Shown in pieces: positions 12,401 to 63,265 of a stretch of 64,000 bases of DNA. Made by a program: the position numbers and the translations under genes. The notes below the pieces were generated by a model. The model had not been told where the DNA came from and did no database searches. It saw nothing but the letters and a program-made list of their open reading frames with translations. This DNA is from Branchiostoma floridae (Eukaryota > Chordata > Leptocardii > Amphioxiformes > Branchiostomatidae). Location: assembly GCF_000003815.2 (NCBI RefSeq), contig NW_023365776.1:64001-128000 (forward strand). The letters are read 5' to 3'. The first letter of the stretch is position 1; every line of letters starts with the position of its first letter.

Positions 12401-13020
12401 GATCGCTCATAGATACTACGGTTTTTTTAAGTAATTATAATTGCAGCACTTGCCATGGGCTTGGAGCGTTGCTATGTTGTGGTTCAATGCAAGACTATGG
12501 ATTAAATGTTTTTCGGCAAGTTTTGTAATACGCGATTGATACCGGTATCTCATTAAAACTTCATTTCCTTTTTAATGGTTTTCCCAGTAAACATACTAAC
12601 GTTAACATGCGAACATTTTCAGGTCAACATGCAGAGATGTGTGTGTGCAAACTCACAGGTTCTTTGTACACAAACAAGTATTTTTGATGATAACTATGCA
12701 AGGTTTCGATGACCAACTGTCACATTCCCCATGGCAATACTGATTCAGTCCCGTTTGGAGCCGCATTGTCCACGCGGCAGCAACGACACCTGGCTGAAGT
12801 GCAAAGCACTACAACAACGATGTGTGTGTATATGTGTGTGTAGGGGGGGGGGGGGGGCAAACCAGTTGTATAGCCACCTTCACTTGGGTGTTATGATGAA
12901 TATTTATACATTTTTGTATGTTGTGAAACATCCAGTGACACTGAGCTGATACATCTGTGTGAAATGCTACAACGGATCGGTCGTGTGGATTAATTCCTGC
13001 TCCTTCTGTTTAGGTTTCAG
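12401..13020. other. 5' flank or intron of the LRR receptor gene
   Basis: Contains a TG/G-run microsatellite (about 12821-12857). It ends in a pyrimidine-rich tract with acceptor TTTAGGTTTCAG|G directly before the ATG at 13022, so at least one 5' exon, probably untranslated, should lie upstream. I could not place it. Confidence 0.5.
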
Positions 13021-13021
13021 G

Positions 13022-16000
13022 ATGGGGAAAAGGCTGAAACACATGCTGATTTTCCTTCTCATCATCCTGAAGGATCCCGAAGTACCAGAAGCAGGATGCA
13101 GCTGTTCTATATCCTCACCCTGCAAAAGATGGTATTGGGATACACCACAACCGCCTTGCTGCTACTGCACAGGGCTTGGCCTCACCAGCGTCCCTCAGAA
13201 CATCCCACAAAATATATGCTTCTTATCTTTGGAAGATAATCAGATGACCAGCTTCCCAAAGAAACTCCCAAAATCCTTAACTTTCTTGAATTTGGGAAAC
13301 AATCACATAACAAGCATTCAGGCAGGTTTAGTCTCAAATCTACCCCTGCTTGGTCAATTGCACCTGTACAAAAACCGGATAACTAACATTGAGCCTGGCA
13401 GCTTTTCAAATCATTCGTTGCTGTGGAAGGTGAGCCTTTCTTCAAACAGCATAAAACACCTCCAAACTGGCGCATTTTCAAATTTACCCAAGCTCCGAAA
13501 ATTGTATTTTGAGAACAACGATATAAATGACATCCATTCAGGCGCATTGTCAAACCTACCAGAGTTGCAAGATTTAAATCTAAACAGCAACCGTATAAAT
13601 AGCATCCAGCCGGGTGCTTTCTTTAATCTACCCAAACTTCGCGAATTGCACCTGGGTGGCAACCAGATCAAGCAAGGCACATTCACTAATTTACTCAAGC
13701 TCAGATCTTTGAACCTAAAGGTAAACAATATGACTTCTATCCATCCAGGTACATTCATTAATCTACCTGAGCTCTTTGACTTGTACCTGTCGTATAACCG
13801 GATAACTTCTATCCCATCTGATACATTCACTAATCTACCCAAGCTAGAATATTTGGAACTGAAGGAAACCCAGATAGCTTCCATCCAACCCGGAGCAATC
13901 TCTAATCTACCCCAACTCTGTAACTTGATTCTTTCTCAAAACCAGATAACTTCTATACAAACCGGTACATTCTCTAATCTACACAATCTCAATAATTTGA
14001 ACCTGGAGAAAAACCAGATTATCTCTATTCAACCAGTTGCATTCATTAATTTACAGAAGCTCAAAAAGTTGTACCTATCCTATAACCAGATGACTTCTAT
14101 CCAGCCTGGTACGTTCACAAATCTACCTGAACTCTGTATCCTCGACCTGTCTTATAATCAGATAACTTCTATCCAGCCATTTACATTCACTAATCCTAAG
14201 CTTGAGGCATTGCACCTGTATGGAAACCAAATAACTTCTATCCAGCCAGGTGCATTTGCTAATCTTTTAAAGCTCGAATGGCTGAATCTATATATAAACC
14301 AGATGTCTGTCCTTCCCGCGTCTGTTCACGACATGCTGTCAGCAATCAGGTGTGTAGAAATTTACAACAACCCCTGGCAGTGTGACTGTAGGATGGTTCC
14401 CTTCAGACTGAAAATGAATGGGTCTGCTTATTTCGAAAACCAGATAACTTGTGCCCAACCTGCCAACTTCCGCGGGCAAAAGATCAAAGATATCAACCCT
14501 GAAGACCTGATCTGTGAAGATACCCATGCTTCATCTGCAGTGTCAGCATCTTCATTTGACACCACAGAAAGCAATACTAGCCCGATAGCACATCCTATAG
14601 GCTCCACAGCTGATGGTATCCATACCTCATTCACCTCATCTGCAGTGTCAACATCTTCAGTTGGCATCCCAGAAAGCAATACTAGTCCGATAGCACATCC
14701 TATAGGCTCCACAGCTAATGGTATCCATGTCTCATATGCATGCATCTCATCTACAGTGCATCCTGTAGGCTCCACATCTGTCCAACAGCCCATAACAACA
14801 GCATCACTAACTACACCCCTTGTAATCCCCCTACCTGTTCTCATCGGCTCTACCTTTGGTACAGTGGGTGGTATTGTCCTGATTGGCGGCATAGTTCTTA
14901 CCATTTGGTGCAAAAAGAGGACCAGGCATCATCCTTCAGGCCGGAATTCTAAAGTTATCGTAACTATCCCAAACACTACAGCTACTGGGAATGATGATCA
15001 GGCATTGCAGAGTCTGAATGTTGTAACACATAACAACATACTAGCTGCCTTAAAGCAAAATCCTACATACGGAGGTGTAGGAGCACCACCATCTACAAGT
15101 TGTCATGATCAGACAGGCCAGGGCCAGTCTCAGGCCATCATGGAATCCTACACAAGCAACACACTTGCAGTAACAGTCAGTGGTCAATGTCAGACAGGGT
15201 ATCAGACTCTCCGTCACACTAAACAGAACACAGGGCCTACTGCAGAGCTGTGTAAAGCTACAAGCAAGTATCAGGCCATCACTGAATCCCACACGTACAC
15301 AAACACCACAGCTGCTGTACTGACTGGTGGTCATGATCTGTCAGGGCAGGGTCAGTCTCAGACCATCACTGAACCCAACACAAGCTCCGCAGCTAGTGTA
15401 CTGACCAGTGGTCATGGTCAGACAGGGAAGGGCCAGTATCAGAACATCACTGAATCCAACACAAACACCACAACTAGTGTACTGACCAGTGGTCATGATC
15501 TGACAGGGCAGGGCCAGTATCAAAACATAGCTGAATCCAACACAAACACCACAGCTAGTGTGCTGACCAATGGTCATGATCAGACAGGAGAGGGTCGGTC
15601 CCAGGCCATCACAGAACACAACACAAACACCACAGCTGCTGCACTGACCAGTGGTCATGAACAGACAGGGCAGACCCAGTCTCAGAATAACACTCGATCC
15701 TTTGATGTTAGAAATCTAGCATATAACCAAACTGCATCTCTGTCACAGCAAAATCGTCTGTACACAGGAGTAGGATCACCTCCAAATAACCCAACAAGCG
15801 GAGGTGCAGGTCCAGGGAAACCTGTAGAAATAAAGACATCTGGATCCCCAAATCAAAGCAAACCCTGGAAAGATGAACCCCCTCCACTTCCCCCACCTTG
15901 TGAAGGTGCTGATACTTTACTAGCTGTCTCAGAGCCTTACGTATACGAAGACGTTGATACGCCATTAAAGAGCCTTAAACGTACAGTTGTTTGGCCGTCT

Positions 16001-16708
16001 GCTAAGAACGAGACGCTGGTTTTGGCCAACAAGACTAAACCCACAAAAGAAGAGCCTCCCCCTCTTCCTCCACCCCGTAGAATTGATAATACCGTGCTAA
16101 CTGTCTCATATCCCCACCTGTATGAAGATGTCGACGCGCCAAAACCGACAGTTAGAGGTCTAAGGCAGATTGCTAATAAGACCATTGTTACAGAGAATAA
16201 AAACAAAACTGTTCAAGACAAGCCTCCCCCTCTACCACCAAAGATCTCAAAGAGGACAGGTACAGGTCTAAGGAAATTTGCTCAGGATGAGACCATTCTT
16301 ACAGAGAATAAAAACAAAACTGTTAAAGACAAGCCTCCCCCTCTGCCCCCAAAGGGCCCCAAACCGACAGGTACAGGTGTAAGGCAAATTGCTACCAACA
16401 AGACCCTTGGAACAGGTATCAAAAGCAACCCCAGTAAAGAAGATCCTCCCCTTCTTCCCCCATCCCTTAAAGGCACTGACGTCCTGCCAGCAGATTCACA
16501 GCCTCATGTATATGTAAATACACCACAAAAGTGCCCGAAACAGAAAGGTGCCGGACTAAAGCACTTTGGAACAGATTTAAAAAACAAACTTCCTAAAGAT
16601 AAACTTCCCAAAATCCCACCACAAGGCAAATGTACTGAAGCCAGCTTTGAGAAGTCCGCAGGGTCTGATGACAACCTGCATGTTTATGAAAATAACGAAC
16701 TTGAATAG
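13022..16708 (+). CDS. Single-exon LRR transmembrane receptor with SH3/SH2-ligand tail
   Basis: The frame encodes 1228 residues without interruption. I chose the ATG at 13022 because a splice acceptor ends at 13020, and the longer frame begins only with GTG at 12959. Order of parts: signal peptide (1-25); cysteine cluster like an LRRNT (26-50); 16 leucine-rich repeats of mostly 24 residues with the core LxxLxLxxNxI and TSIQPGTFTNLP (about 64-440); LRRCT cap with NNPWQCDC (449-456) and cysteines near 477 and 498; a Ser/Thr-rich stalk with a duplicated segment (500-597); one membrane helix (about 598-629) followed by CKKRTRHH. The cytoplasmic tail has an NPTY motif (680-683), five regular 27-residue repeats, PPPLPPP twice, PPPLPPK twice, DPPLLPP, two YEDVD motifs (Y975, Y1034), YVNT (Y1164) and YENN (Y1222). 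Known partners of such motifs are PTB, SH3 and SH2 domains, so the receptor probably signals through adaptors. LRR 7 (about 21 residues) and LRR 14 (23 residues) are short. The ligand is unknown. Toll-like function is unlikely because no TIR domain is present. Confidence 0.9.
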   Translation: MGKRLKHMLIFLLIILKDPEVPEAGCSCSISSPCKRWYWDTPQPPCCYCTGLGLTSVPQNIPQNICFLSLEDNQMTSFPKKLPKSLTFLNLGNNHITSIQAGLVSNLPLLGQLHLYKNRITNIEPGSFSNHSLLWKVSLSSNSIKHLQTGAFSNLPKLRKLYFENNDINDIHSGALSNLPELQDLNLNSNRINSIQPGAFFNLPKLRELHLGGNQIKQGTFTNLLKLRSLNLKVNNMTSIHPGTFINLPELFDLYLSYNRITSIPSDTFTNLPKLEYLELKETQIASIQPGAISNLPQLCNLILSQNQITSIQTGTFSNLHNLNNLNLEKNQIISIQPVAFINLQKLKKLYLSYNQMTSIQPGTFTNLPELCILDLSYNQITSIQPFTFTNPKLEALHLYGNQITSIQPGAFANLLKLEWLNLYINQMSVLPASVHDMLSAIRCVEIYNNPWQCDCRMVPFRLKMNGSAYFENQITCAQPANFRGQKIKDINPEDLICEDTHASSAVSASSFDTTESNTSPIAHPIGSTADGIHTSFTSSAVSTSSVGIPESNTSPIAHPIGSTANGIHVSYACISSTVHPVGSTSVQQPITTASLTTPLVIPLPVLIGSTFGTVGGIVLIGGIVLTIWCKKRTRHHPSGRNSKVIVTIPNTTATGNDDQALQSLNVVTHNNILAALKQNPTYGGVGAPPSTSCHDQTGQGQSQAIMESYTSNTLAVTVSGQCQTGYQTLRHTKQNTGPTAELCKATSKYQAITESHTYTNTTAAVLTGGHDLSGQGQSQTITEPNTSSAASVLTSGHGQTGKGQYQNITESNTNTTTSVLTSGHDLTGQGQYQNIAESNTNTTASVLTNGHDQTGEGRSQAITEHNTNTTAAALTSGHEQTGQTQSQNNTRSFDVRNLAYNQTASLSQQNRLYTGVGSPPNNPTSGGAGPGKPVEIKTSGSPNQSKPWKDEPPPLPPPCEGADTLLAVSEPYVYEDVDTPLKSLKRTVVWPSAKNETLVLANKTKPTKEEPPPLPPPRRIDNTVLTVSYPHLYEDVDAPKPTVRGLRQIANKTIVTENKNKTVQDKPPPLPPKISKRTGTGLRKFAQDETILTENKNKTVKDKPPPLPPKGPKPTGTGVRQIATNKTLGTGIKSNPSKEDPPLLPPSLKGTDVLPADSQPHVYVNTPQKCPKQKGAGLKHFGTDLKNKLPKDKLPKIPPQGKCTEASFEKSAGSDDNLHVYENNELE
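15310..15685 (+). repeat. Coding minisatellite, 81-bp units
   Basis: Inside the LRR receptor gene, five 27-residue units of the form SVLTSGHDQTGQGQYQNI plus TESNTNTTA follow one another, with two more degenerate units upstream. The repeat length is a multiple of three, so expansion or contraction keeps the frame. The units are rich in Asn, Thr, Gln and Gly and look disordered. Confidence 0.85.
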
Positions 16709-27838: not shown

Positions 27839-30800
27839 TCAACAATTTAACTGCCTGTGCATCTCCAACACCTTAGACAACACTTGGAACGCCTTTCCCT
27901 CCTCTCCCATATCTCTCCGCGCTTTACACAGGTTGGTAAGAATTATCAGCACATCCCGGTGTGGCGTGTCATGTCCATAGATCTCTCTCATCATCTTCAG
28001 CGACTTCTGAAGAAATCTAGCTGCCTTCCTATGTTCCCCACGTAGTCTCCAGACCGTACCTAGATTGCCTAGTGACTTAGCGATACACTGATGCGTCGCG
28101 TCGTGGCCGTAAAGCTGTTTCCCCATCTTCAGAGCCTGCTGGTTCAAGTCCAACGCTTTTGAATGATTGCCGTGATTACTCCATGCTGAAGCCAGGTTGT
28201 GGAGTGACGTTAGAGTGTCCGGATGAGCCGCGTCATCTCCAAAAAGACGCTGTCTCATATTCAAAGCCTTGTCGTGTAAGTTGATTGCCTTTTCGTGCTC
28301 GCCTATGTTATTCCAAGCCATGCCTAAATTGTTGAGAATCGACGCGACCTCAGTGCAGGACATGTCGTGGCCGTGCACAAGTGTCCACATTTCCAAAGCC
28401 TGCTCGTAGAAGTCGATAGCTTTTTTGTGATCGTCTAGGTCACTCCAACAGGTTCCTACGTTGCTGAGTGACCTGGCAATGTCAGAATGTGCAACATCTC
28501 CGTGCAAACGTTTTCTCATTCGTAGAGCATCTTCGTGGTAGTGGATTGCTTTCCTGGGATCACCCAAATGTTCCCAAGCTCCGCCCAGGTTCATGAGAGA
28601 CGATGCAATGTCAGTATGCAGTGTATCATAGCCATAGAGCCGTCTGGCTAGAGCCAAGGCATTTTCAAGTATGTCGATCGCTTTCCTGTACTCCCCCAGC
28701 TCAATCCAGGCTGTGCCCAGGTTGTTAAGTGAAACCACGATTTGCGGGTGCATTGCATCCTGTCCCCATACTAGTTTCCTCATCTCTAGGGCCTTGTTAT
28801 AAAAGTGAATGGCTGTCTTACAGTCCCCTAGCTCTTGCCATGATCTACCAAGACCATCCAGCGACCACGCGAGATCTGGGTGTGCCCCTTCGTGACCGTA
28901 TATAGTTTTTCTCATATCGAGAGCCTGTCCACAAATATGGATCGCCTTTTTGTAGTCTCCCAAGTAACCGTAGACTGCCCCTACGTTGTTGAGAGACAGT
29001 GCGATGCTTGGATGCACCGCGTCACTTCCGTGTATACGTTGAAACATATTCAGAGCTTCCTCATAGTAGTCCTTGGCTTTCCTGTAGTCTTCCAGACGAC
29101 TCCAAGCTTCTCCAAGGTTGATGAGAGATGTCGCCACCTCTGAGTGATCCATACCCTGTCCGTACAATGTCTTCCATAGATCCATGGCCTCTTCGAGAAA
29201 TCTTAGAGCTTTTCTATGATCACCCAGAGCACTCCACGCGAAGCCAATACTGTTCAGTGACGAGGCAATTTCTGAGTTCGCCATTTCGGAACCAAAGACT
29301 CGTTTCCTCACAGCCAGAGCCCTCTCAAAGAAGTCCAATGCCTTTCTGGGATCGCCAAGATCTTGCCAGGCCGATCCGAGGTTATGGAGCGTGATAGCAA
29401 TTAGGGGGTGCGCCATGTCTCGTCCGTACAGAATTCTGTACATGCTTAGCGCCTGTTGATGTACATCAAATGCTTTCTTGTAATCTCCCGCCTGAGCTAG
29501 TGCTATACCGAGATTGTCTTGGGAGACGGCAATATCTGGGTGAGCCGCATTTGCCCCATAAATGTGTTTCCTCATATCCAGAGCCTGTCTGTAGAAATCC
29601 ACTCCTTTTCTGTAATCTCCAATGCACAGCCAAGCGGCTCCGAGGTTGTTTAGTACTAAAGCAATGTCTGGATGTTTCGCGTTGGCCCCGAATATACGCT
29701 CCCTCATATTCAGGGCCTTTTCATAGAAGTAGATAGCTTTTCTGTCATTACCCATATCACTACAAGTTTTGCCGAGATTATTCCATAACATTGCAATGTC
29801 CTTGTGTGCCGATTTGCCGTGTACTCGTTTCAGTATTCTCAGAGCTTGTAGGTATAAAGCCACTGCTTCTTCCGTATTTCCCAGATAGTTTGCAACTATG
29901 GCAAGACCAGTAAGCGAGGTCGCGATATCAGGGTGTGCTTGTTCCTCTCCATGTATATCTTTGTACATCTTCAGGGCTCGTTCGAAGAAATTCTTTGCTT
30001 GTGTGTATTCTCCAAGCTTCAGACAGACATGACCGAGGCTGTGTAGGTTTGATGAAGTCATGGGATGTGTGGTGTTTCCGTACATGATCTTCTTCCTTTT
30101 TAGTTCGGTTTCTAATTGTTCTTTAGCTGATGTGAAATTGCAGAGCTCTGAGTTCATTTTACCCATGATTTCTTCGGTGCAATTGAATAGAGTTGATGAT
30201 ACTAGAGACCTCAGCTGCTGGTCTTGGGGTTTTAAGAGAATTCTACGAAGAGGGACAGCGGTGTAGTAATACCTGTACAACATCTTACGGTTTGGGAGAT
30301 AGAAAACCTTTTCAATGACTGGTGTGGTGGTACCTGTTATGCTAGTGCTAGTAGGCACCAAGGCAGACATGTTTTCTTTCTGCCCTCCATTTTCTATGTA
30401 CGTCCTCAGCCTCAGCTCTGCTGAGATACTAACAAGAACCGCCAGATGTCGCGCGTTTTCTTCACTCACATGGTTTCCCTTTTGCAGTTCTTCTATCAAT
30501 GCCCACACACTGCTTGCCTGGACACCGCAGCGCAAGGCAATATTCTGTACGGCGATGGCGGGGAAGCGATATATTTCCTTCTTTACGTTCAGAAGCGTTG
30601 CTGTTAGTTTAGGAGTGCTGAATTCTTCCCTGTCTGCCATTTGAGCGCTGGCGTCGACACCATTATTCCTAAATGTTGCCGACACTGCCATCAGGTACTC
30701 TTTCACTAGAGCAATCTCGCCTGTGATGTAGCACGCGCTCTGCAAGATGTCTGATAAGTGATATCCTTCCGCGAGGGCAAAGTCAAGCCTCTGATACATG

Positions 30801-32555
30801 GCCATTTTCCTAGGCGTTTGAATGAGCTCAAGAGCCGGCTTGGTATTCGTCTGCTTCCGCCCGAGTGGAGTTTTGCTCGCCCATGGCATGGCTCCGTCAA
30901 ACGAGAAACCGTGAGGCGTTACGGAGTCATAGAACCAACTGTCTCCCGGATCGTCGGAGTAAAAATCATTCAGTGATTTTACCCCCATTGCGGGTAGAAT
31001 GGTCTCTCCCAGGTTGATGATTTTTAGATGTAAGTAGTGGGTAATGTTTCGAAAGTATTGTTTATTGTCATCAGAATCGGATCCGTCTTCCAGCAGTATT
31101 GCAAATTCCAGATCGGAATACGGAGTTACCAATTCTGTAGCCTGTGAACCCAAACCTATGACGGCATACTTACATGGCGGCTGCCCCATAACATTGGTGC
31201 ATTCAACAATGAGCTTGTGTATGAAGTGTATCCTGTCCTTGGCTATGTTTTGAAACAGTTCTTTCACAGCTACAGCTCTTGCCGTTTCAACCTCTTTCAC
31301 TACTGCACCATATCCATCGTACTTGTATGGATCGTGTCGTTGCTCAATAGCGGCAAGTTGCCCTTTCACGTTTTCTCGCATTGTTTTCAAACCATTCTTA
31401 TGCTGTTTATTCGTCTCAAAATGATTTGGTTTACAGTCCGAGCCCAAAGTATGTTGAACGAACGCCTGCTCTGTCTGTTCTACAGCATGTGCTATGGCCT
31501 TCCTAAGCTCTTCCTCCGTTGTTCTCACCAAGGCTGCGTTGTAGAGGGCGGCGGCTTTGGTGAAGTCTGAACCTTGTTGAGTCATCTTCCCACGTTCAAG
31601 GTAGACGTTTCCCATCTTGTGTAAACATTCGGCTTCTAACTGCACGACTGAGGGCTCCTTCCCTGTGTTGATGAGATAATGATTTATAATAGTATACAAT
31701 TGATAACGTTTTTACGGAGATAAGGATTTGATTATATGGATGACATCCTCTGGGAACCCCAAAACTGATGCGAGCGTGAGAATAAAAAAATGTCTGGCCA
31801 AAAAATGCCTTCATGCATTATGCAATCTAAGTGGTCTGACAGTTTAAACAAATGACTAAAAACACAGAGTATGATATACCGAACAATAAATTCTTCATTT
31901 TTGTTCTTTCCCATCTTCCCCTATGACCGTGAAATTAACCTTGCAATTTTATGATATTAGTACACGATTTCTGATATGTATTTTTTTTCATCCAACGGCA
32001 CATATTTGCACATTTTGCAGCTGCTTTGTACGGTTTACAGTATGGTAGAATTTTTTTTATTAATTTTTGGAAATGGACGAAAATTGATGCGCGCACAGAT
32101 GGCATCCAAATTATCAAACCAACATTACCGAAGGTCGAAAAAGGTCAATTTACCAAAATTTTTTGTATTGATTTTATATACATACAACTGTCTTGTAAAC
32201 AGCACGTTTTACCCACCGTACTCACCATGAACAAGCTTCAGCGCAGAGGCAAACAGAAGCTCTGCCAAGTCTAACCGTCCCATCTGCTTCGCCTGGTCCC
32301 CCAGACAGCAATGTTCTCTGTACGACCTGTATGAACGATAAAATCACACAACGCTAGTTCACCTTTATCCGCGGGGTAACCTATATCCGTTGTTTTGAAT
32401 GATGTATTGATAGGGTGGGTTTTTTTTTTCAAATGTGATCATGTGGTCGTGAGAATACAAATATTAAGAACTTACCTGAAATCATCTGTAGTTTGAAAAC
32501 CTGTAACTGCCATGGGGGGTTCGTTGTCACTCGTTCTCTTCCTGACGTCAGTCCT
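27839..32555 (-). CDS. Nucleotidyltransferase-fold protein with 17 C-terminal TPRs
   Basis: Minus-strand exons 32476-32555, 32226-32326 and 27839-31662 splice in frame with GT-AG borders. If translation starts at the ATG at 32513 (context CCCCCCATGG), the product is 1320 residues. If spliced to the exon at 34130-34671 it is longer. Order: a TPR-like N-terminal part (EHCCLGDQAKQMGRLDLAEL, then KAAALYNAALVR); a nucleotidyltransferase core GLGSQATELVTPYSDLEF with the pattern G-S-x(10)-D-x-E (G218, S219, D230, E232); an all-helical segment with GYHLSDIL and LRLRTYIENGGQ; then 17 near-identical units of 42-44 residues (about 579-1320) of the kinesin-light-chain/nephrocystin-3 TPR type, with core LNNLGxAWxxLGDYRKAIDFYEQAL. 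The NTase pattern keeps the acidic residues that bind metal in the pol-beta/GlnD superfamily, so activity is possible. TPR arrays bind protein partners. The substrate is unknown. I know this architecture as multicopy in Branchiostoma. The exon carrying all TPRs has no introns. Confidence 0.9.
31663..32225. other. Last intron of the NTase-TPR gene
   Basis: Contains the TGGATGACATCC / GATGCGAGCGTG dispersed repeat (about 31724-31860) also seen in SLC22 intron 1, and a TTTACAGTATGG...GATGCGCGC segment (about 32000-32100) shared with 47870-47990. Confidence 0.5.
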
Positions 32556-32778
32556 CTATAACAAATAACAAAGGTTTGTTAACGTGTGTTATCATAAGGA
32601 AAAGAAAAACTTATCATAGGTAAAATAATACATGATTATCAAAATTAAAAATGAGTAATACATGTACATTGTATATGGGAGCCGCGGAAACCAACAAGGA
32701 TGGTACCCAGAGGTGAAACTTGGCAGATGGTCAAATGTCAGGAACTCGAGGACGGCATGTGCCCGAGAGTGCAGCATG

Positions 32779-32983
32779 TACTGTAAATGCAGAAATGTTC
32801 GCGGTTTTCGCGGTTTTCGCGGTGACCACTTCACAGCGAATTTAAAACCACTGCGAACATTTTTTCTATTATGGTATTAGATTGTAGTCTATGATGTAAC
32901 CGCGAAATTAAAACCACCGCGAAAAGTCCTTTTTCCCTTAACCGCGAAATTAAATCCCCGCGAACTTAAATGCATTTACAGTA
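32779..32983. mobile_element. MITE with TACTGTAAATGCA termini
   Basis: Inverted ends TACTGTAAATGCA and TGCATTTACAGTA with interior CCGCGAAATTAAA motifs, the same family as 6567-6754. It lies 220 bp upstream of the possible start exon of the NTase-TPR gene, so it could sit in its promoter or in an upstream intron. Confidence 0.75.
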
Positions 32984-33740
32984 TTTCGGAATACGGACAC
33001 GGTTGTGCTATGTTTTGTCCAAAAATCCTCTAATTGTCAGTGGCGGATTTGAGATCTCCGATTTCTTGCTTGACCATTGAACAGAATGCAGTTGGAGTTG
33101 ACACAAACCACTATATAGCTGTCATCTAAAATTTTCGAATTTCTTAGCACTTTGGATGGGTTTAATGTAAAAAAAAGAGAAACGATTCATTCTGATTTCA
33201 AAGGCAATCACAAGGGGAAAATACAACCTAAACTCCCTTTTTTTCTTCCTTTTCTTAGCAAATCTAAACAAATATAGCTTCCAACGGTATATGAATTTCA
33301 AACTAACGTAATCAAGCACGCAGTATACTGTTCCTGGTCGCCTCTCCGCAAAACAAGCAGAAACGCGTGAGCTGAATACTAAGTGGCCACGACGACAAAA
33401 ACAAAGCCGTAAGGAAGTGAAACCGTGACCTTCGTGTGTGAAAAAACACACAGTACAGTAGACTAAACAGCTTACATGTAGTTACGCGGACTTGTAACGT
33501 AAGAAAATACTAGTACTTCCTCATTTCCAACATGTATATACAGTGGGATCACACTCTTTTCATGTGGTACTCACCCCCAAGACAATAGTGTCGTGGAATA
33601 ACCCTTACTCAGATGACATGCAATGCCTGGTGATTATATTTGGCAACGTGCATTGCCAAACTACCTACTAGGAGGTTCACGGAAAGACCATGGGTCTACA
33701 AATTAAGAGGGCCGTTCGGTTCGGGCGGTGGACAAAACCT
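32984..33740. other. No recognised feature
   Basis: Upstream or intronic sequence of the NTase-TPR gene, AT-rich, without a clear exon. Confidence 0.4.
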
Positions 33741-33749
33741 ACACCACTT

Positions 33750-33939
33750 ACTCTCTGCCCCTAGAGCTATATACCACTTTAAAATCAGGACTATATGCGA
33801 GATATCAAACCCCACTGCAGTACTTATTAGAAAGCCGCTAGGGGCCATTATCGAACATTCCCGTCATTTTCTCGACCCCTACCCACCTACCAAATATCAT
33901 AAGGATACATCTACAACTTCTCGAGTTAACAGAACACAC

Positions 33940-33972
<33 letters not shown>

Positions 33973-34065
33973 GCACGCACACACACAGACACACACACGC
34001 ACACACACAGACACACACACACACAGACACATATACAAACAAACAAACAAACAGCACCGAAAATA
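33750..34065 (+). repeat. CA-tailed dispersed repeat with long (CA)n tract
   Basis: Same family as 37600-37925 (AGAGCTATATACCACTTT, AAGCCGCTAGGGG and CCTACCCACCTACCAAATATCAT blocks), followed by (AC)n at about 33941-34030 and (AAAC)n. The frames on both strands here are cysteine/valine or threonine/histidine strings from the CA tract and are not proteins. Confidence 0.65.
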
Positions 34066-34129
34066 AAACTTCTTTGCGATGGAAACAAACGAAAAAAATG
34101 TGAAACTGAATGCAGAACGTTAACCTAAC

Positions 34130-34671
34130 TCTTTTCAGCACTTCCTTGATCCTCTCGGTGTACAGGACGCGATGGACAAGTACCTCTCTCCTGTCTGGGT
34201 CATCCTCACATCTTGTCCTAGCCTTCTCGTACATTCCCTTCGCTTTCAACATTAGAGATGAATCTGACATCTCCTTTCCTTCCTCAAGATACAAGTCCCC
34301 TAGAGTTTTGAGGACTTCTACTTCGAGCGGTGTGTCACAAGTTGCGATAGCGGTTACCAAAGTTTTGGTGTATGTTTCCTTAAGGAATCTTACATCTCCC
34401 CCATCTTGGGTCCTATCTAGAGTAAGGCAGATGTCAGCCACACGTAGAATACTGCTTGGAAATGTACGAATGTTGTTTCCAATGTCCCTGTGCCAGTTTA
34501 AAACGGATTTGCGTTGCGCTTTGCTAGCAAGTTTCTCTAAGTACCGGATACGGTGCTTGATAGCTTCTCTCCCGTCTGTATCTGTACACCGTACGAAGGC
34601 AGCCCCGTATAAGGCCGCGGCCTTGTCAAATTCTCCCGCGTCCTTCTCGATCCTTCCCCTCTGGAGATATA
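34130..34671 (-). CDS. N-terminal exon of an NTase-TPR family protein, cut by a gap
   Basis: About 180 codons read YLQRGRIEKDAGEFDKAAAL, YGAAFVRCTD, IRYLEKLASKAQRK, then KTLGDLYLEEGKEMSD, YEKARTRCED and RIKEVLKR. The LERG...KAAALYNAA(L)VR pattern repeats the one at the start of the NTase exon, so this belongs to the same family. The donor can be at 34130 (phase 0, fits exon 32476-32555) or at 34125 (phase 2, fits exon 32226-32326 directly), and both keep frame. I therefore favour it being the 5' part of the same gene rather than a separate paralogue. The frame enters 100 N at 34672, so the start codon is not visible. Confidence 0.7.
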
Positions 34672-34771
34672 NNNNNNNNNNNNNNNNNNNNNNNNNNNNN
34701 NNNNNNNNNNNNNNNNNNNNNNNNNNNNNNNNNNNNNNNNNNNNNNNNNNNNNNNNNNNNNNNNNNNNNNN
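34672..34771. other. Assembly gap (100 N)
   Basis: Exactly 100 N, inside the 5' coding part of the NTase-TPR gene. Confidence 0.99.
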
Positions 34772-38563: not shown

Positions 38564-41500
38564 TGAATGAATGAATGAATTTATTGCTCAACAATCGCAC
38601 AGGGTACAATGTATGGCAATTAATAACAACTAATAGCTATACAGACAGTAGTACTAAGAGGCTACATACAAAACAACAACAAAACATTATCGATAATAGT
38701 ACAGTTATGTATGATTAATCTGATCTCGCATTTGGAATACATTATAAAGAAACTGGCCTACGTAGACGGATATATGAGTTGAACATGAGAGCAATACATG
38801 GAAAATATCGCTTTCTGCACCAGCGAGAGAGATGTGTGTTTTGGTTCTAACATTCTTAAACAATGTTTCTCTCTCTTTACTGTAGGTGGGACATTTCATA
38901 ACAAAGTGGAATTCATCTTCTATATTTTCATGACATGTAGGACACAGTCTCTGAGTGGCTGGTGTGTTACGGTGACGACGTTTTTCAATTTCTAAGCAAT
39001 GTGCACTTATTCTCAGTTTTGTAATGTTGTATCTAAATGATCTATTATGAATTGATTTGAGATATTCTTCCATACCAAAGTGTTTTTTGATTTTCGAATA
39101 TGTTTTAAGTTTGTTGGTGCTTTTGAGCTGTTCCCTCCAGCCAGAAAGAAACGTGTCTTTTAGACGCTCTTTGAATATGTTCCCAAAATGTTTGGCATTA
39201 ACAGCGGGGTTAAGCCAAACATTTTGGAACCCATGTCGGCATAAAATGTCCTGAACGTGAGTAGCCCAGTCATGTCCTTCTTCGACTGAAGTGTCGTAAG
39301 CCTTTTTAACAATCCTATCATTTGGTAGAGTATGCAATCTTAGCCAATATTTAATCAGATATGTTTGACTGTCAACGAATAGAGGAAATACTCCTAATTC
39401 CCCTCTTACGGCGGCATTGACAGAGCTTTTCGGTACATGAAGTAAAATTTTGCAGAAATTTAAGAGTACGTATTCTAAGTCAGGTATTTCATATGAGATT
39501 TTTGGTTGTTCTATTGTTATATGCTGGTTCCTAAACAAAGTGTCTGACTGGTATATCACGTTCAGTTTGTCACTGTATTTCTTGAATCGAACAAGAATGG
39601 GACGAGTATAAATAGGCGAGGCTTCTGATATATTTCCCATACGAGAGACTCTAAGTATGTCAACTTCTGATCCCAATATCGGACTGAGGACTCTGGCTAT
39701 AGATGTTCTGGTCGTTTCATTTTGACATTCCGGAACCCCTTTGAATATTAAATCTCTGCAGTGTGCATTTATTCCTGTGAGCTCACTACAATAAAGTAGG
39801 ATAGGTTTAACCAGGCTGTTAAACAGATCAATAGCTAGGGAAATCGAGGGGTTGGAATTAGATGATAAGAATGATTTCAATTTGAACGAGGCCCGTAGTG
39901 CTTTCAATCTTAACTGTTTTATGGCTCGACTAAAAGATCCTGAAGGTGTTATGTCCACTCCTAGGTAGGTATAAAAGTGTGTTATCTCTATACTTTGACC
40001 CTGAGATGTGAAAGGTGACTGTTTGTTATTGACTGTCCGCCCATTTTTGGAGAAGATCATTACTTTTGTTTTGTTCTTATTGATTGATAATTTCCACAGA
40101 GAGCAAAATTGGTCCAGTGCCCTCAAACATTCTTTGAGGCCTGATTCTGATTTCGATACAAGTACAAGGTCATCAGCCCAAAATATGCTGTTTACAGGAG
40201 TATCTTTTAAGAATAGGGAGTCACAAGATATTGGATTTAATAGGGCCGGGAAATCGTTAATATAAAGGTTAAAAAGGAGGGGACTTATGTTACAACCTTG
40301 TCTCACCCCGCAGAATGACTGGAAGTATGGTGACATGCCGTGTGGGGTTTTAACGCAATATTCTATGTTGTGATACATTGATTTTATTAGTCTAAAGAAG
40401 TTACCTCCTATCCCTAACGATAAAAGTTTATAGAATAGTCCGTTTCGCCATACCAAGGACGTTACATCACCTGATGTAACGTCCTTGGCCATACCGAATC
40501 AAAAGCTTTTCGGAAATCCACGAAACAGGCATATAGCTTACCCCCAGGTTTGGATGTCTGTTGGTCGATTAACGTTTTGAGGACAAAGACGTTATCGCTT
40601 GTTCTAAAATCTTTTCTAAAACCGGATTGAAAAGGTGATAGTAAATTTGAGCTTTCAAGGAAATGTTGTAAACGTTTGTTCAGGATAAAAGTAAACAATT
40701 TGCCGACACAGCTAGAAATAGCTATTCCTCTGTAGTTGCTAGGATTTGATGCTTCTCCACTTTTATAGATTGGAACTAGAGTGCTTTGGCTCCACTGTTG
40801 GGAAAAATGTCCGGACTGTAAAAATATGTTGAACATTTTTTTGAAGGGCTGTATCAGTTGAGGTGCGCCATATTTCAGCATTTCATTAATTATTGAATCT
40901 GTTCCGCTAGACTTGTTGCTTTTTAAACTAGACAGAGCGTTTTGGATTTCTTCTTCAGTAATCTCGAAGTCTAGCGGGTTATCAGTTTCATGTTCAAGAG
41001 AGTTGATTATTTTATCGGCGTGTTCTTTATCTTTTGTATCTACTGTGATGTTTGCATTAATTGTTTTAAAATGATTAAGCCATTCACTAATTGAAATTTC
41101 GTCCCCTGTCTCAACCTTGGACCCATTTTCTAAGTTTCGAAGATTATTGATTTCTCTCCAGAATGATTTAGGTTCTTTCTTAGCTAGTTTGGATAAGAAT
41201 GTCATTTTCCCTTCATTATGTTGTTTTTTTCTCTTTTTTATCAGTTTCTTATATTCCTTGACTTTGTATACATAATTTTGTCTTTTGTCTTGTCGCCATG
41301 GAAATTTCCTAATTTCCGCGGCAAGGGCTCGCATTCTTGATTTTAAATCCCGACACTGTTGGTCGTACCACGGTTTATTTAAAGGTTTCTTTTTTCGCTT
41401 CAAAACTCGAATAGATTTTAGTGACAAGTCAGCTGTTATTTTGATGATGTTATTAAAGTCTTCAACAACATGTTTTGTTTGGCTGGCAGAGTACGGTTTT

Positions 41501-42339
41501 GATATAAACTGTTGTATGGCGTTTTTTGTTTGTGAGGAACGAAGGGCCTCCTGGAATTTTTCACATGACGTTTCTTCCCAGATATATCTTTTAGGGAATG
41601 AATTAGTTTTTTCTTCTGTTTTGTGTCTAAAATTTGAATGATTCGTTTTAAGGGAGACTGAAATTTGACAATGATCGGACATCCAGGTTGGGTCGTGGAC
41701 TTTGAAATACTGTACAGATGTGAAGAAATGTAGACTAGTAATACAGTAGTCTACCGTACTTGTGCCATTATATTTTATACATGTGTTTTTTCCTGGAAGA
41801 TCCCCAATAGTCCTTCCATTTACAAGAATCATATTAGCAGCAGAGCATAAATCAATGAGTTCTCTGCCGTATCTGTTATTTACAGTGTCGGTATTAAATC
41901 TTGGTTTTAGTTGAATTTCACATGCATTTTCATCAAGACCATCAAACAGTTTTTCTTGTACATTAGATGTTCTAGAATTCAAATCACCCAGAAGTAGAAT
42001 ATGTCCCCCGCTGTTGAATTTGGCTATGTCAGCAGTTAGGTCTTCAAACAGTGTATTCTTTTTAGTAGCAAATATTGGAGAATTTTCAGGAGGTAGATAA
42101 AGACAACCTAAAATTACATCCCTGTCAAAGCCAAAGAAATTCTTATCTAATTTGCACCAAATAATGTCGGAATTGTTACTATGTAATTTCGAGATTCCTT
42201 TCGCAAGATTTCGTTTAAAGAGAAGAACTACCCCGCCTGAATTTCTACGTGATTGTTTTTTAAGTTTTCTGTCGCTCCGGAAATAGTGGTAACCGTCTAT
42301 ATAAAAGTTGTCTTCAGGTTTCAGCCACGTTTCTTGATA
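38564..42339 (-). mobile_element. 5'-truncated APE-type LINE, broken by a hairpin insertion
   Basis: Read on the minus strand, the 5' part (42339-40494) encodes an apurinic-type endonuclease (ETWLKPEDNFYIDGYHYF, LLLGDLNSRTSN, VNGRTIGDLPGKNTCIKYNG, DYCIT, MSDHCQISVSL) lacking its first residues. A linker and the start of reverse transcriptase (LVPIYKSGEASNPSNYRGIA, FVDFRKAFDSVW) follow. After a 41-bp insertion the frame resumes shifted (40447-38705): NGLFYKLLSLGIGG, GVRQGCNISPLLFNLYINDF, catalytic FWADDLVLVS, and a C-terminal C-x2-C-x8-H-x4-C knuckle (CPTCHENIEDEFHFVMKC). The 3' end carries an (ATTC)n tail at 38564-38583. Except for the break and the 5' truncation, the frames are open, so the copy is fairly young. 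The clade (CR1/L2/Jockey-like) is not resolved by eye. Confidence 0.88.
40448..40493. mobile_element. 36-bp perfect hairpin insertion with 5-bp duplication
   Basis: The core 40453-40488 consists of two perfect 17-base arms (CCAAGGACGTTACATCA and its reverse complement) around CC. It is flanked on both sides by CCATA (40448-40452 and 40489-40493). Removing 41 bases restores the LINE reverse-transcriptase frame across FRKAFDSVWRNG. Confidence 0.9.
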
Positions 42340-42705
42340 GAGACATCTTTCCCCCAGACTATGGTGCCTGTCCCCGGCGCCTTGGCCAGGGGCATGGCTG
42401 GGGACCCATGGCGGGCGCACATCTCGTCACCGCTCTTAAGGGCCCTTAAAAAACCCTGGGTCCCATTGGAATGCATTGCGCCAGGGTTTTTTACACCTAT
42501 TTTTTTTATACCAAGAAAGTACCGCCGGCTTTTAGCACCAGGACACGCCCGTCGGTCGTCATCATCGATCTAGCGCGAAAGACCCGGCCTCTGGTGGCCG
42601 CTGACCGCCTGAGGCGGTGAAAACGGGCCCTGACCTGTCCAGGGCTATGACGTCATCGTGGCCTCGGAGCCACGGAAAGGTATAATGGCAACTTATGACG
42701 AGAAA
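42340..42705 (+). repeat. 366-bp GC-rich repeat, unit 3
   Basis: A full unit in the same orientation as unit 2, immediately past the LINE 5' end. It is followed by the start of another unit (GAGACATC at 42706) that stops after a few bases. Confidence 0.85.
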
Positions 42706-58749: not shown

Positions 58750-60045
58750 AAAAGTCCATTTTTGCATAAAGGGGAGAGCGGAGTGAAAATAGCTGAATTT
58801 GCTCCTAAGCAAATACCGGCCTTTCTAGTCCTTTATCTCTTCTTCTCCTCCTCCTCCTGTCAAATCTTCAAATGGATTCTACTTTTTCATTCTTGGGCCA
58901 AATGAGCTGAAATTTGGAATGGTAGTAGGGATAGCAAATATCCCCAGACTTTTTTTCAATTTCTTGATAGAGACCTTAGAATTTATGATATTTAGGGTTT
59001 TTGGTCATTTTTAGACAAAATATGTATATTTTGGGCCCCTGTGCCCTGGTATTACAAGCTAATGACCTGAAATTTGGTACAGAGGTGCATTGGACATATA
59101 AGCACAGGAACCCATCAACACCTTCTTCATAGATCACTTAAAAAATTAGTTATTTGGGGGTTTTGGGCCATTTTTGACTAAAAATGTATATTTTTGGCCC
59201 CTGTGCCCAGGTATTACAAGCTAATGATCTGAAATTTGGCACAGAGGTGCATTGGACATATGAGCACAGGAACCCATCAACACTCTCTTCATAGATTACT
59301 TAAAAAATTAGTTATTTTGGGTTTTTGGGCCAATTTTGACTAAAAATGTATATTTTTGGCTCCTATGCCCTTTTATAGAATTCAAATGACCTGAAATTTG
59401 GTACATAGGTGCATTGGACGTATGGGCACAGGATCCCATCAACGCTTTCTTCACTGACCACTTCAAAAATGAGCTATTTTGGAGTTTTCGGCCATTTTTG
59501 ACTAAAAATGTTTATTTTTGGCTCCTATGCCCTTGTATAGAAACCTAATGACCTGAAATTCGGCATGAAGGTGTGTCTGGCATGTGCCCACAGTACTTCA
59601 TTTTCACTTTGGGGATACATTACTTTAAATTGTTGAATTTTGGGATTTTTGGCCATTTTTAGACTAAAAATGTTAAGTTTTGGCTCCTGTGCCTATGTAT
59701 GGAAACCAAATGGTCTGAAATTTGGTATAAAGGTGCGTACGGTATGTGGCCACAGGGCTCTATTCACACCTATGGTGTACATCAATTAAATATTGTGAAA
59801 TTTGGGATTTTTTGCCGTTATTGACCAAAAATGTACATTTTTGCTTCCTGTGTCATGACAAAGCCAACTGATCTGGAATTTGGTATTAGGGTAGCTTTAG
59901 CACTATAAATGGGAAATGGGCCAAATAGACTGGTCCATTTTGCATAGATAGGGGTGTTCTGGAAGAGTCCATTATTGTATGAAGGTGGATTGCAATATGC
60001 TGTATTTGCTCCCAAGCAAATGTCGGCCTTTCTAGTTTTGCTCTG
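58750..60045 (+). repeat. 162-bp tandem array, seven decaying units, with repeated borders
   Basis: The anchor CTGAAATTTGG (or a close variant) occurs at 58907, 59067, 59229, 59391, 59553, 59715 and 59873. The word TTTTTGACTAAAAATGT recurs in most units. The block opens and closes with similar sequence: GAATTTGCTCCTAAGCAAAT at about 58795 and GTATTTGCTCCCAAGCAAAT at about 60002, each followed by GGCCTTTCTAGT. Confidence 0.85.
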
Positions 60046-61883: not shown

Positions 61884-63265
61884 TACCTCCATGAAATATT
61901 TTAAGCAGCTTTAGATTCATTGTTTCATCTTGTCTCATTGATTATACAAATAAGGCTGCAACCAAAATCATCTATTTTATCTATGGTAGTCTTCTTCACA
62001 CAAAAAAAAACATAAATTTTTTTTGTTTGGAGCCCTGTCAGCAAAATTTAATGTTTACATTTTGTCATTAATTGCTATTGACGCATTTCCATACTCTATG
62101 AATTGCAGTGTACAAATTAACTAACTTACATAAACCAAAAGTAAATATGTGATCCCTGGCACTTGCCACTATAGAATGATAGCACTTTTGCATTAATTAT
62201 GCAAATTAATATTATTTGCTTGATCAGTAATGGTTAACGTTTCACCTGCCAGAATTCAATTAGATTTAATGTGTATAAAAGACCTATTTTAGAAAACATG
62301 TTAGAATTACAAATTTTGCCCATCAATTGTGCCAAGTAAGTCTTGCTTTGCATAATATCATTATGTACATCTGTCTAAATTTCTACAAAAGCACTCCTTC
62401 GTTTCCTGGAAAATCCACCAGCGGGCCCAAAACTACAGGGTTTCACAGGGACTGCTTGACACAAGATAAATGGAGATCAAAGCACTGTTTGTGGGAAGTA
62501 AGCAAGAAAGCTTACATGGACAAAAGGAGAGCGAAGCATTGTAGGTGCAGAAGTAAGCGACAGAGCTTACTCTCTCTCCAGGCATACCGGCTGTTTCCCT
62601 ATGACGGCATTGGTCTCGCCTTCCATGGGGGACATTGCTAACAAGGGACCAGTTTCACAGGGACTGCCTTACACAAGACAAAAGGAGAGCGAAGCATTGT
62701 AGGTGCAGAAGTAAGCGACAGAGCTTACTCTCTCTCCAGGCATACCGGCTGTTTCCCTATGACGGCATTGGTCTCGCCTTCCATGGGGGACATTGCTAAC
62801 AAGGGACCAGTTTCACAGGGACTGCCTTACACAAGACAAAAGGAGAGCGAAGCATTGTAGGTGCAGAAGTAAGCGACAGAGCTTACTCTCTCTCCAGGCA
62901 TACCGGCTGTTTCCCTATGACGGCATTGGTCTCGCCTTCCATGGGGGACATTGCTAACAAGGGACCAGTTTCACAGGGACTGCCTTACACAAGACAAAAG
63001 GAGGGCAAAAAGGAGATCATAGTATTGTATGTGCAAAGTAAGCTTGTGGCATGTTGAAGGTATGTGAATGTGAACAATGAATTTTTTGAGTATGACCTCA
63101 TTTGCATAATTGATAGAAATAGGAGTTGTTTTTTTTTAGACAACATCGCTTCAGTTTAGGTGCAAGAGATTATCAACTAATTCATTTCAATAAGGGCCTT
63201 ATTTGAATAGATAATAAGAAACATGATAAGATAGTTGTTAGGGTTAAAATCATTTCATGGAGGTA
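61884..63265. mobile_element. TIR-bounded element carrying a tandem array
   Basis: TACCTCCATGAAAT at 61884 is inverted as ATTTCATGGAGGTA at 63252-63265. The interior shares GCATTAATTATGCAAATTA and ATTATGTACATCT words with 37175-37924 and holds the 158-bp array (62520-62993). Confidence 0.6.
62520..62993 (+). repeat. 158-bp tandem repeat, three nearly identical units
   Basis: Units at 62520-62677, 62678-62835 and 62836-62993 begin ACAAAAGGAGAGCGAAGC, with partial diverged units on both sides. Each unit contains the inverted repeat AGTAAGC GACAGA GCTTACT, able to form a small stem. Confidence 0.93.

What the first reader, a model, noticed from the sequence alone, without database searches (positions are those of the whole stretch)
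27839..34671. Nucleotidyltransferase fused to 17 near-identical TPRs
GLGSQATELVTPYSDLEF keeps the G-S...D-x-E signature of pol-beta/GlnD-type nucleotidyltransferases, and the C-terminus is a long NPHP3/kinesin-light-chain-like TPR array. An enzyme that can modify proteins or make nucleotide signals, joined to a large recognition solenoid, is the design seen in several immune sensors. That role is inference. The family appears expanded in amphioxus and has no assigned function.
Basis: partly seen in the sequence, partly recalled or inferred. Interest (0 to 1): 0.72.

Follow-up and report, generated by a model that had tools for sequence, protein, structure and literature searches.

The report
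Amphioxus AMPylase with a TPR targeting arm
This amphioxus gene joins an enzyme domain, predicted to fold like the bacterial enzymes that tag proteins with AMP, to seventeen TPR repeats that would choose the target; hundreds of related sequences keep its catalytic residues, and many of them vary most at the TPR positions that likely bind partners, so it is likely a member of an unrecognised class of enzyme-armed recognition proteins.

The parts
34130..34669 (-). Exon A (first one present): N-terminal TPR-like helical region; the 5' part is lost in the N gap 34672-34771
   Evidence: tblastn with P0007, 70% identity; splice check; weak TPR_14, E 0.00047
32476..32555 (-). Exon B
   Evidence: AG/GT borders and in-frame joining
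32226..32326 (-). Exon C
   Evidence: tblastn with P0007, 64% identity; AG/GT borders and in-frame joining
27839..31662 (-). Exon D, the main exon: end of N-terminal region, NTase plus helical domain, 17 TPRs, stop codon at 27839-27841
   Evidence: open frame; 79% identity to P0007
30077..31444 (-). Nucleotidyltransferase body that was modelled: NTase fold plus C-terminal helical domain
31007..31282 (-). Pfam DUF294 match
   Evidence: 29.4 bits, cut-off 21
31106..31150 (-). Catalytic motif G188-S189-x10-D200-x-E202 (residue 1 is the first codon of the open frame 31711-27839)
   Evidence: kept in 327 of 327 spanning instances
30896..30898 (-). D272, likely third catalytic acid
   Evidence: kept in 327 of 327; the role as third acid is inferred
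30362..30595 (-). DUF294_C-like helical domain (put in the HEPN clan by PMC3710099)
   Evidence: 21.5 bits, just under cut-off 22.5; passages of the paper
27842..30067 (-). Array of 17 TPRs of kinesin-light-chain/nephrocystin-3 type
   Evidence: repeat split; TPR_10 and TPR_NPHP3; first part modelled as regular helix pairs

Best explanation
The gene encodes a nucleotidyltransferase with conserved catalytic acids that is predicted to transfer AMP onto a protein, as DrrA and GlnE do, and whose TPR arm would likely choose the target. SHOWN: the intact reading frame after the gap, the NTase signature with three conserved acids, 17 TPRs, a large amphioxus family, relatives in octocorals, an annelid and bacteria, and TPR variation that peaks at known ligand-binding positions in the family. 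PREDICTED: the DrrA/GlnE-like two-domain fold. INFERRED: ATP as donor, a protein as acceptor, target choice by the TPRs, and use against or in response to intracellular microbes. Proposed cycle: the TPR groove binds a specific protein (a microbial protein, or a host protein altered by one), the bound protein or a neighbour reaches the active site, Mg-ATP held by D200, E202 and probably D272 gives AMP to a hydroxyl side chain, and the tag inactivates or flags the target. Gene duplication and exchange of repeats would then diversify the groove while the enzyme is kept. The window copy has old, diverged repeats, so its partner is probably stable.
Against: No activity data. The second acid is E, not D as in DrrA. 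SidM_N in the window protein is below its cut-off (at most 19.2 of 27 bits). A shared fold does not fix donor or acceptor; UniProt names relatives after uridylyltransferases. The window gene and P0007 show no concave excess (0.26 against 0.32), two further pairs of 26 go the same way and one ties. Concave positions vary most in TPRs generally (PMC1261162), so the variation alone does not prove diversifying selection; a control with unrelated TPR families and codon tests were not run. Pairs include orthologues and possibly alleles, and some gene models are truncated. Homologues were collected by shared words, which favours kept motifs.
Confidence: 0.55

Rival explanations
1. A GlnD-type uridylyltransferase or another protein nucleotidylase with a housekeeping target: same chemistry on a protein, but UMP (or another nucleotide) and a conserved partner, with copy number driven by drift.
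For: Pfam DUF294/DUF294_C and the UniProt name Protein-PII uridylyltransferase N-terminal domain on relatives. The window gene and its closest relative are well conserved (84% NTase, 78% TPR, no concave excess).
Against: Closest solved folds are adenylyltransferases, though no GlnD row appeared, which excludes nothing. Expansion and concave-face diversity of relatives do not fit one stable target.
Confidence: 0.2
2. A gene family spread mainly by duplication of unstable repeat genes, with concave variation from relaxed constraint and little immune meaning.
For: Detected repeat number differs in 22 of 26 close pairs (truncated models may add to this); concave positions are the most variable in TPRs at large (PMC1261162).
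Against: Catalytic residues kept in 327 of 327 spanning instances. Concave change is 1.8 times that of convex exposed positions.
Confidence: 0.2
3. A nucleotide-signal synthase of the cGAS/OAS/CD-NTase kind with a TPR sensor.
Against: Far below DrrA (25.9) and GlnE (20.7); the helical domain is of DrrA/GlnE type. Weakness or absence in that list does not exclude such a product.
Confidence: 0.08
4. A small-molecule nucleotidyltransferase, as in aminoglycoside-modifying enzymes, with TPRs for localisation.
Against: The whole-body match is to protein adenylyltransferases; chlamydial relatives pair the domain with F-box or OTU and TPRs, which act on proteins.
Confidence: 0.07

Closest known systems
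DrrA/SidM adenylyltransferase domain (Legionella)
   Different: 17 TPRs follow; SidM_N below cut-off in the window protein; E in place of the second D; animal gene; 15% identity in the structural alignment
GlnE glutamine-synthetase adenylyltransferase
   Different: One catalytic unit, not two; TPR array; eukaryotic
Pfam DUF294 / DUF294_C (GlnD-like) proteins
   Same: DUF294 above cut-off (29.4 of 21 bits). PMC3710099 already lists DUF294_C, GlnD/GlnE and DrrA helical domains together (passages)
   Different: DUF294_C just under cut-off; TPR array follows
Chlamydial NEX2 family (Neochlamydia; PMC4209131)
   Same: DUF294 in mid protein and TPRs at the C-terminus; 50 proteins, lineage expansion (passages)
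   Different: Most NEX2 members start with an F-box, ten with OTU after it; none in exon A and the non-TPR part of exon D or in the list for P0007
Metazoan AMPylases FICD and SelO (PMC8097203)
   Same: FICD also joins TPRs to a protein AMPylase
   Different: Unrelated catalytic folds; the review says only Fic and SelO classes are known in metazoans (abstract and passages)
Fungal NLRs with internally conserved TPR/ANK/WD repeats (PMC4986451)
   Same: Repeats of one array alike, repeat number variable, change focused on the binding face (passages)
   Different: An enzyme stands in place of the NOD domain; no array here reached a mean of 85% (0 of 137), the level that paper used by its own measure; positive selection not tested
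Coral TPR-CHAT expansion (PMC12314368)
   Same: Large TPR-plus-other-domain family in an invertebrate (passages)
   Different: CHAT domain, not an NTase

Membership tests
Pol-beta nucleotidyltransferase superfamily | G-S ... D-x-[D/E] motif on the NTase core | tested here: met
   327 of 327 spanning instances in 316 proteins, window included; the other 20 of 336 (15 proteins and loci L002, L003, L004, L008, L009) had no instance spanning both motifs and were not counted
Pol-beta nucleotidyltransferase superfamily | NTase fold | tested here: met
   confident model; the four Foldseek rows at E<=0.001 are all NTases of this kind
Pol-beta nucleotidyltransferase superfamily | third catalytic acid | tested here: inconclusive
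   D272 invariant but geometry not measured; E236 is kept in 325 of 327
Pfam DUF294 (PF03445) | score above the curated cut-off | tested here: met
   29.4 of 21 bits; 40 of 41 relatives match at E<=0.01
Pfam DUF294_C (PF10335) | score above the curated cut-off | tested here: not met
   21.5 to 21.9 of 22.5 bits
DrrA/SidM family | SidM_N (PF20879) score above cut-off | tested here: not met
   at most 19.2 of 27 bits in the window protein
DrrA/SidM family | GEF and PI4P-binding domains after the ATase | tested here: inconclusive
   after the NTase mostly TPR-type matches head the list, but only 25 of 40 families were shown
Protein adenylyltransferases (works like) | transfer of AMP to a protein | not testable with these tools
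   needs an enzyme assay
cGAS/OAS/CD-NTase | closest fold to cGAS-like or CD-NTase structures | tested here: inconclusive
Chlamydial NEX2 family | F-box at the N-terminus (majority of members) | tested here: inconclusive
   none at E<=0.1 in exon A and the non-TPR part of exon D nor in the precomputed list of P0007; exons B, C were not scanned and ~52 residues of the window copy are missing
Diversified repeat receptors (fungal-NLR type) | near-identical repeats with change focused on the binding face | tested here: not met
   window gene: 39-41% repeat identity; concave 0.26, convex 0.32 against P0007. Some relatives come near, e.g. P0051
NLR/STAND receptors | NACHT or NB-ARC domain | tested here: not met
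   none at E<=0.1 in exon A and the non-TPR part of exon D; the missing 5' end was not seen

The most novel reading that the evidence does not exclude
Amphioxus carries hundreds of enzyme-armed recognition proteins: DrrA/GlnE-type AMPylases, a third metazoan AMPylase class beside Fic and SelO, each steered by its own TPR array whose groove is diversified by repeat exchange and change at positions 2, 9, 12 and 13. The same NTase-TPR module serves intracellular bacteria as a host-directed tool, so hosts and symbionts wield one weapon against each other, passed between them by ancient gene transfer.
Probability: 0.3. Interest if true: 0.93.

Novelty: new variant of a known kind. Interest (0 to 1): 0.8.

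Why it matters
[quoted passage not shown] A third one in a large, diversifying family would open an unexplored field of protein modification in animals. The family is also a natural library of TPR arrays in which a conserved enzyme is coupled to changing binding grooves, so the recognition rules of TPRs, and how an invertebrate without adaptive immunity might diversify intracellular recognition, become directly testable. The bacterial relatives offer a route to a shared target.

Tried and rejected
Near-identity of the 17 repeats: rejected for this gene. CD-NTase-like and MNT-like readings: disfavoured by the fold ranking, not excluded. Defence library: PADLOC none; NCBIfam only a sub-threshold MntA antitoxin match (14.4 of 60 bits). 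A profile of amphioxus domains alone (A1) found no PDB sequence at E<=10; the more diverse A3 was needed. Whole-genome copy number by the genome search: not completed, so copies per species are unknown. A second NTase copy in the window: none at E<=1. Origin by transfer: for the first tree 66 sequences were taken (20 amphioxus of the hundreds found), 4 dropped for short coverage (P0213, P0215, P0239, P0241); the 62-row tree left the backbone open. The 39-row tree (21 unnamed rows and the long-branched L010 and L011 dropped) put the 27 animal rows on one side of a branch with support 91/90, not decisive, with the chlamydial rows nearest; direction unresolved. The bacterial scan used two peptide patterns only, so its taxonomic range is a lower bound. 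The second model (811 residues, pTM 0.78) shows regular TPR helices; no coordinates were at hand to measure the groove or the active site. Papers: ten searches; no listing or passage that I saw describes the animal NTase-TPR family, but only open-licence PMC papers are held and no paper was read whole.
Full report
THE GENE. The minus strand holds one long frame, 31711-27839, 1290 codons. tblastn with the closest listed database protein, P0007 of Branchiostoma lanceolatum, gives three blocks above 50% identity in order: 34669-34130 (70%), 32328-32221 (64%) and 31663-27845 (79%). Splice borders add a small exon between the first two; exons 34669-34130, 32555-32476, 32326-32226 and 31662-27839 join in frame into 1514 codons ending at the stop. 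The 5' end falls in an assembly gap, 34672-34771. P0007 is 83% identical in the searched region and no listed protein is closer, so the window is probably from an amphioxus species or assembly not represented there; the species was not determined.

THE ENZYME PART. Pfam DUF294 is above its cut-off (29.4 of 21 bits), DUF294_C just below (21.5 of 22.5), SidM_N weak (E 0.0024). Scanned apart from the TPRs, this stretch and exon A show no other family above its cut-off. Numbering below starts at the first codon of the long frame. The signature is G188-S189-x10-D200-x-E202. Among 133 domain copies from the first search (window included), G188, S189, D200 and E202 are kept in 133 of 133 and D272 in 132 of 132 with a letter there. 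In the larger set, the window protein, 324 proteins of three searches and 11 bacterial frames, 327 instances in 316 proteins span both motifs and all 327 keep G, S, D, E and D272; the other 20 of 336 had no spanning instance and were not counted. The searches collect candidates by shared short words, which favours conserved motifs, so this is an upper estimate; still, so many diverging relatives without one lost acid argue for selection on catalysis.

THE TPR PART. The C-terminus splits into 17 repeats of 40-44 residues, starts set by eye, with mean identity 41% (39% by profile register). A second model of 811 residues shows TPR helix pairs directly after the enzyme domain, pLDDT 81.6, pTM 0.78.

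THE FAMILY. The first search returned 846 proteins at E<=1e-3 among 7996 scored candidates; the 120 listed are all Branchiostoma. Neighbouring locus tags in the list (Bbelb_223110, 223140, 223150, 223160, 223170) point to tandem arrays. A search with a shorter length range brought octocorals (Paramuricea, Dendronephthya), the annelid Owenia, a Parachlamydiaceae bacterium and Neochlamydia; the octocoral entry that I printed (P0162) ends near the NTase, while Owenia P0225 runs on into TPRs. The scan of bacterial and archaeal species genomes with two peptide patterns gave 11 loci, titled Amoebophilaceae (2), Cytophagales (1), Rickettsia or Rickettsiaceae (4), other Alphaproteobacteria (2), Chlamydiae (1) and a Gammaproteobacterium (1). 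Six of the 11 frames carry TPR hits of the same kind (L001, L002, L003, L005, L006, L007); five do not, of which L009 and L010 run to a contig end. Neochlamydia P0323 has F-box, DUF294, SidM_N and TPRs, and PMC4209131 describes the 50-protein NEX2 family in those terms and its large families as most likely working within eukaryotic hosts (passages). Chlamydiae, Rickettsiaceae and Amoebophilaceae live in eukaryotic cells (general knowledge), which suggests, but does not show, that the module works in eukaryotic cytoplasm. In a 39-row tree the 27 animal rows lie on one side of a branch (91/90) with the chlamydial rows nearest; a 62-row tree leaves the backbone open. Direction of transfer is unresolved.

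DIVERSIFICATION. PMC1261162 names positions 2, 5, 9, 12, 13, 33 and 34 as the most variable, concave TPR positions (passages); I had used 2, 5, 9, 12 and 13 from recall before reading it. Of 134 proteins with one full NTase and at least five repeats, 26 mutual-best pairs were compared. They include orthologues and perhaps alleles as well as paralogues. The TPR part is less identical than the NTase in 25 of 26. Concave positions differ at 638 of 1272 sites (0.50), convex exposed ones at 436 of 1533 (0.28), core ones at 318 of 2309 (0.14). Concave exceeds convex in 22 of 26 pairs, one tie; 4 of 100000 random five-position sets reach the concave mean. In P0083/P0094, with 88% identical NTases, 73% of concave positions differ. 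A stricter set of 9 pairs gave concave 0.445, all other positions 0.242, core 0.116, and 8 of 9 pairs. Within arrays concave exceeds convex in 137 of 137 arrays of six or more gapless repeats, the window's included; mean repeat identity is 70% or more in 53 of 137, 80% or more in 10, 85% or more in none, and under 50% in 27. Positions 31 and 24 also vary strongly. PMC4986451 describes internally conserved repeats, variable repeat number and positive selection on the binding face in fungal NLRs, and calls such repeats rare in animals (passages).

RESULTS AGAINST. The window gene and P0007 have the same repeat number and show no concave excess, 0.26 against 0.32; P0098/P0294 and P0099/P0103 show none either, and P0052/P0074 ties. 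The window repeats are not homogenised. Concave positions are variable in TPRs generally, so without paralogue DNA and a control with unrelated TPR families selection cannot be told from relaxed constraint; the convex exposed positions are only a partial control. Among bacterial frames the within-array concave excess is smaller or absent (for example L007 0.53 and 0.53, L001 0.68 and 0.46). SidM_N does not reach its cut-off in the window protein.

READING. The most economical mechanism is a protein adenylyltransferase whose TPR groove picks the target. The parallel to FICD, a TPR-bearing AMPylase of another fold, and to DrrA, which acts on a host GTPase, comes from reviews (passages). PMC8097203 states that only Fic and SelO classes are known in metazoans. 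In my ten paper searches I saw no description of this animal family; subscription papers are not held. ATP as donor, protein as acceptor, and an immune or symbiosis role are inferences.

Noticed in passing
window 12950-16708 (+): 1252-aa open frame with many LRRs, an LRRCT match and coding tandem repeats; looks like a membrane LRR receptor.
   Followed up: partly
window 38705-42426 (-): Non-LTR retrotransposon: endonuclease and reverse transcriptase in two overlapping frames.
   Followed up: partly
window 62519-63003 and 58990-59843: Tandem repeats: 158-base unit, 3.1 copies, 100% matches; 162-base unit, about five copies.
   Followed up: no
P0002, P0003, P0004, P0005: Gene models with two or three NTase domains; P0002 has three at regular spacing and equal identity, perhaps fused tandem genes or real multi-enzyme proteins.
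   Followed up: no
P0020, P0281: Models that join the NTase to CUB/LDLa or collagen/C1q-type Pfam domains; may be annotation fusions.
   Followed up: no
P0171, P0177, P0178, P0192: Divergent amphioxus members outside the large amphioxus clade; P0178 sits with two octocoral rows with weak support, hinting at old animal paralogues.
   Followed up: partly
TPR canonical positions 24 and 31: Highly variable besides the known concave positions in homogenised arrays; their place in the solenoid was not measured.
   Followed up: no
L002, L004: Very long bacterial frames (2743 and 2813 aa) with NTase units, in records titled Rickettsia typhi but marked MAG; the species label may be wrong.
   Followed up: no
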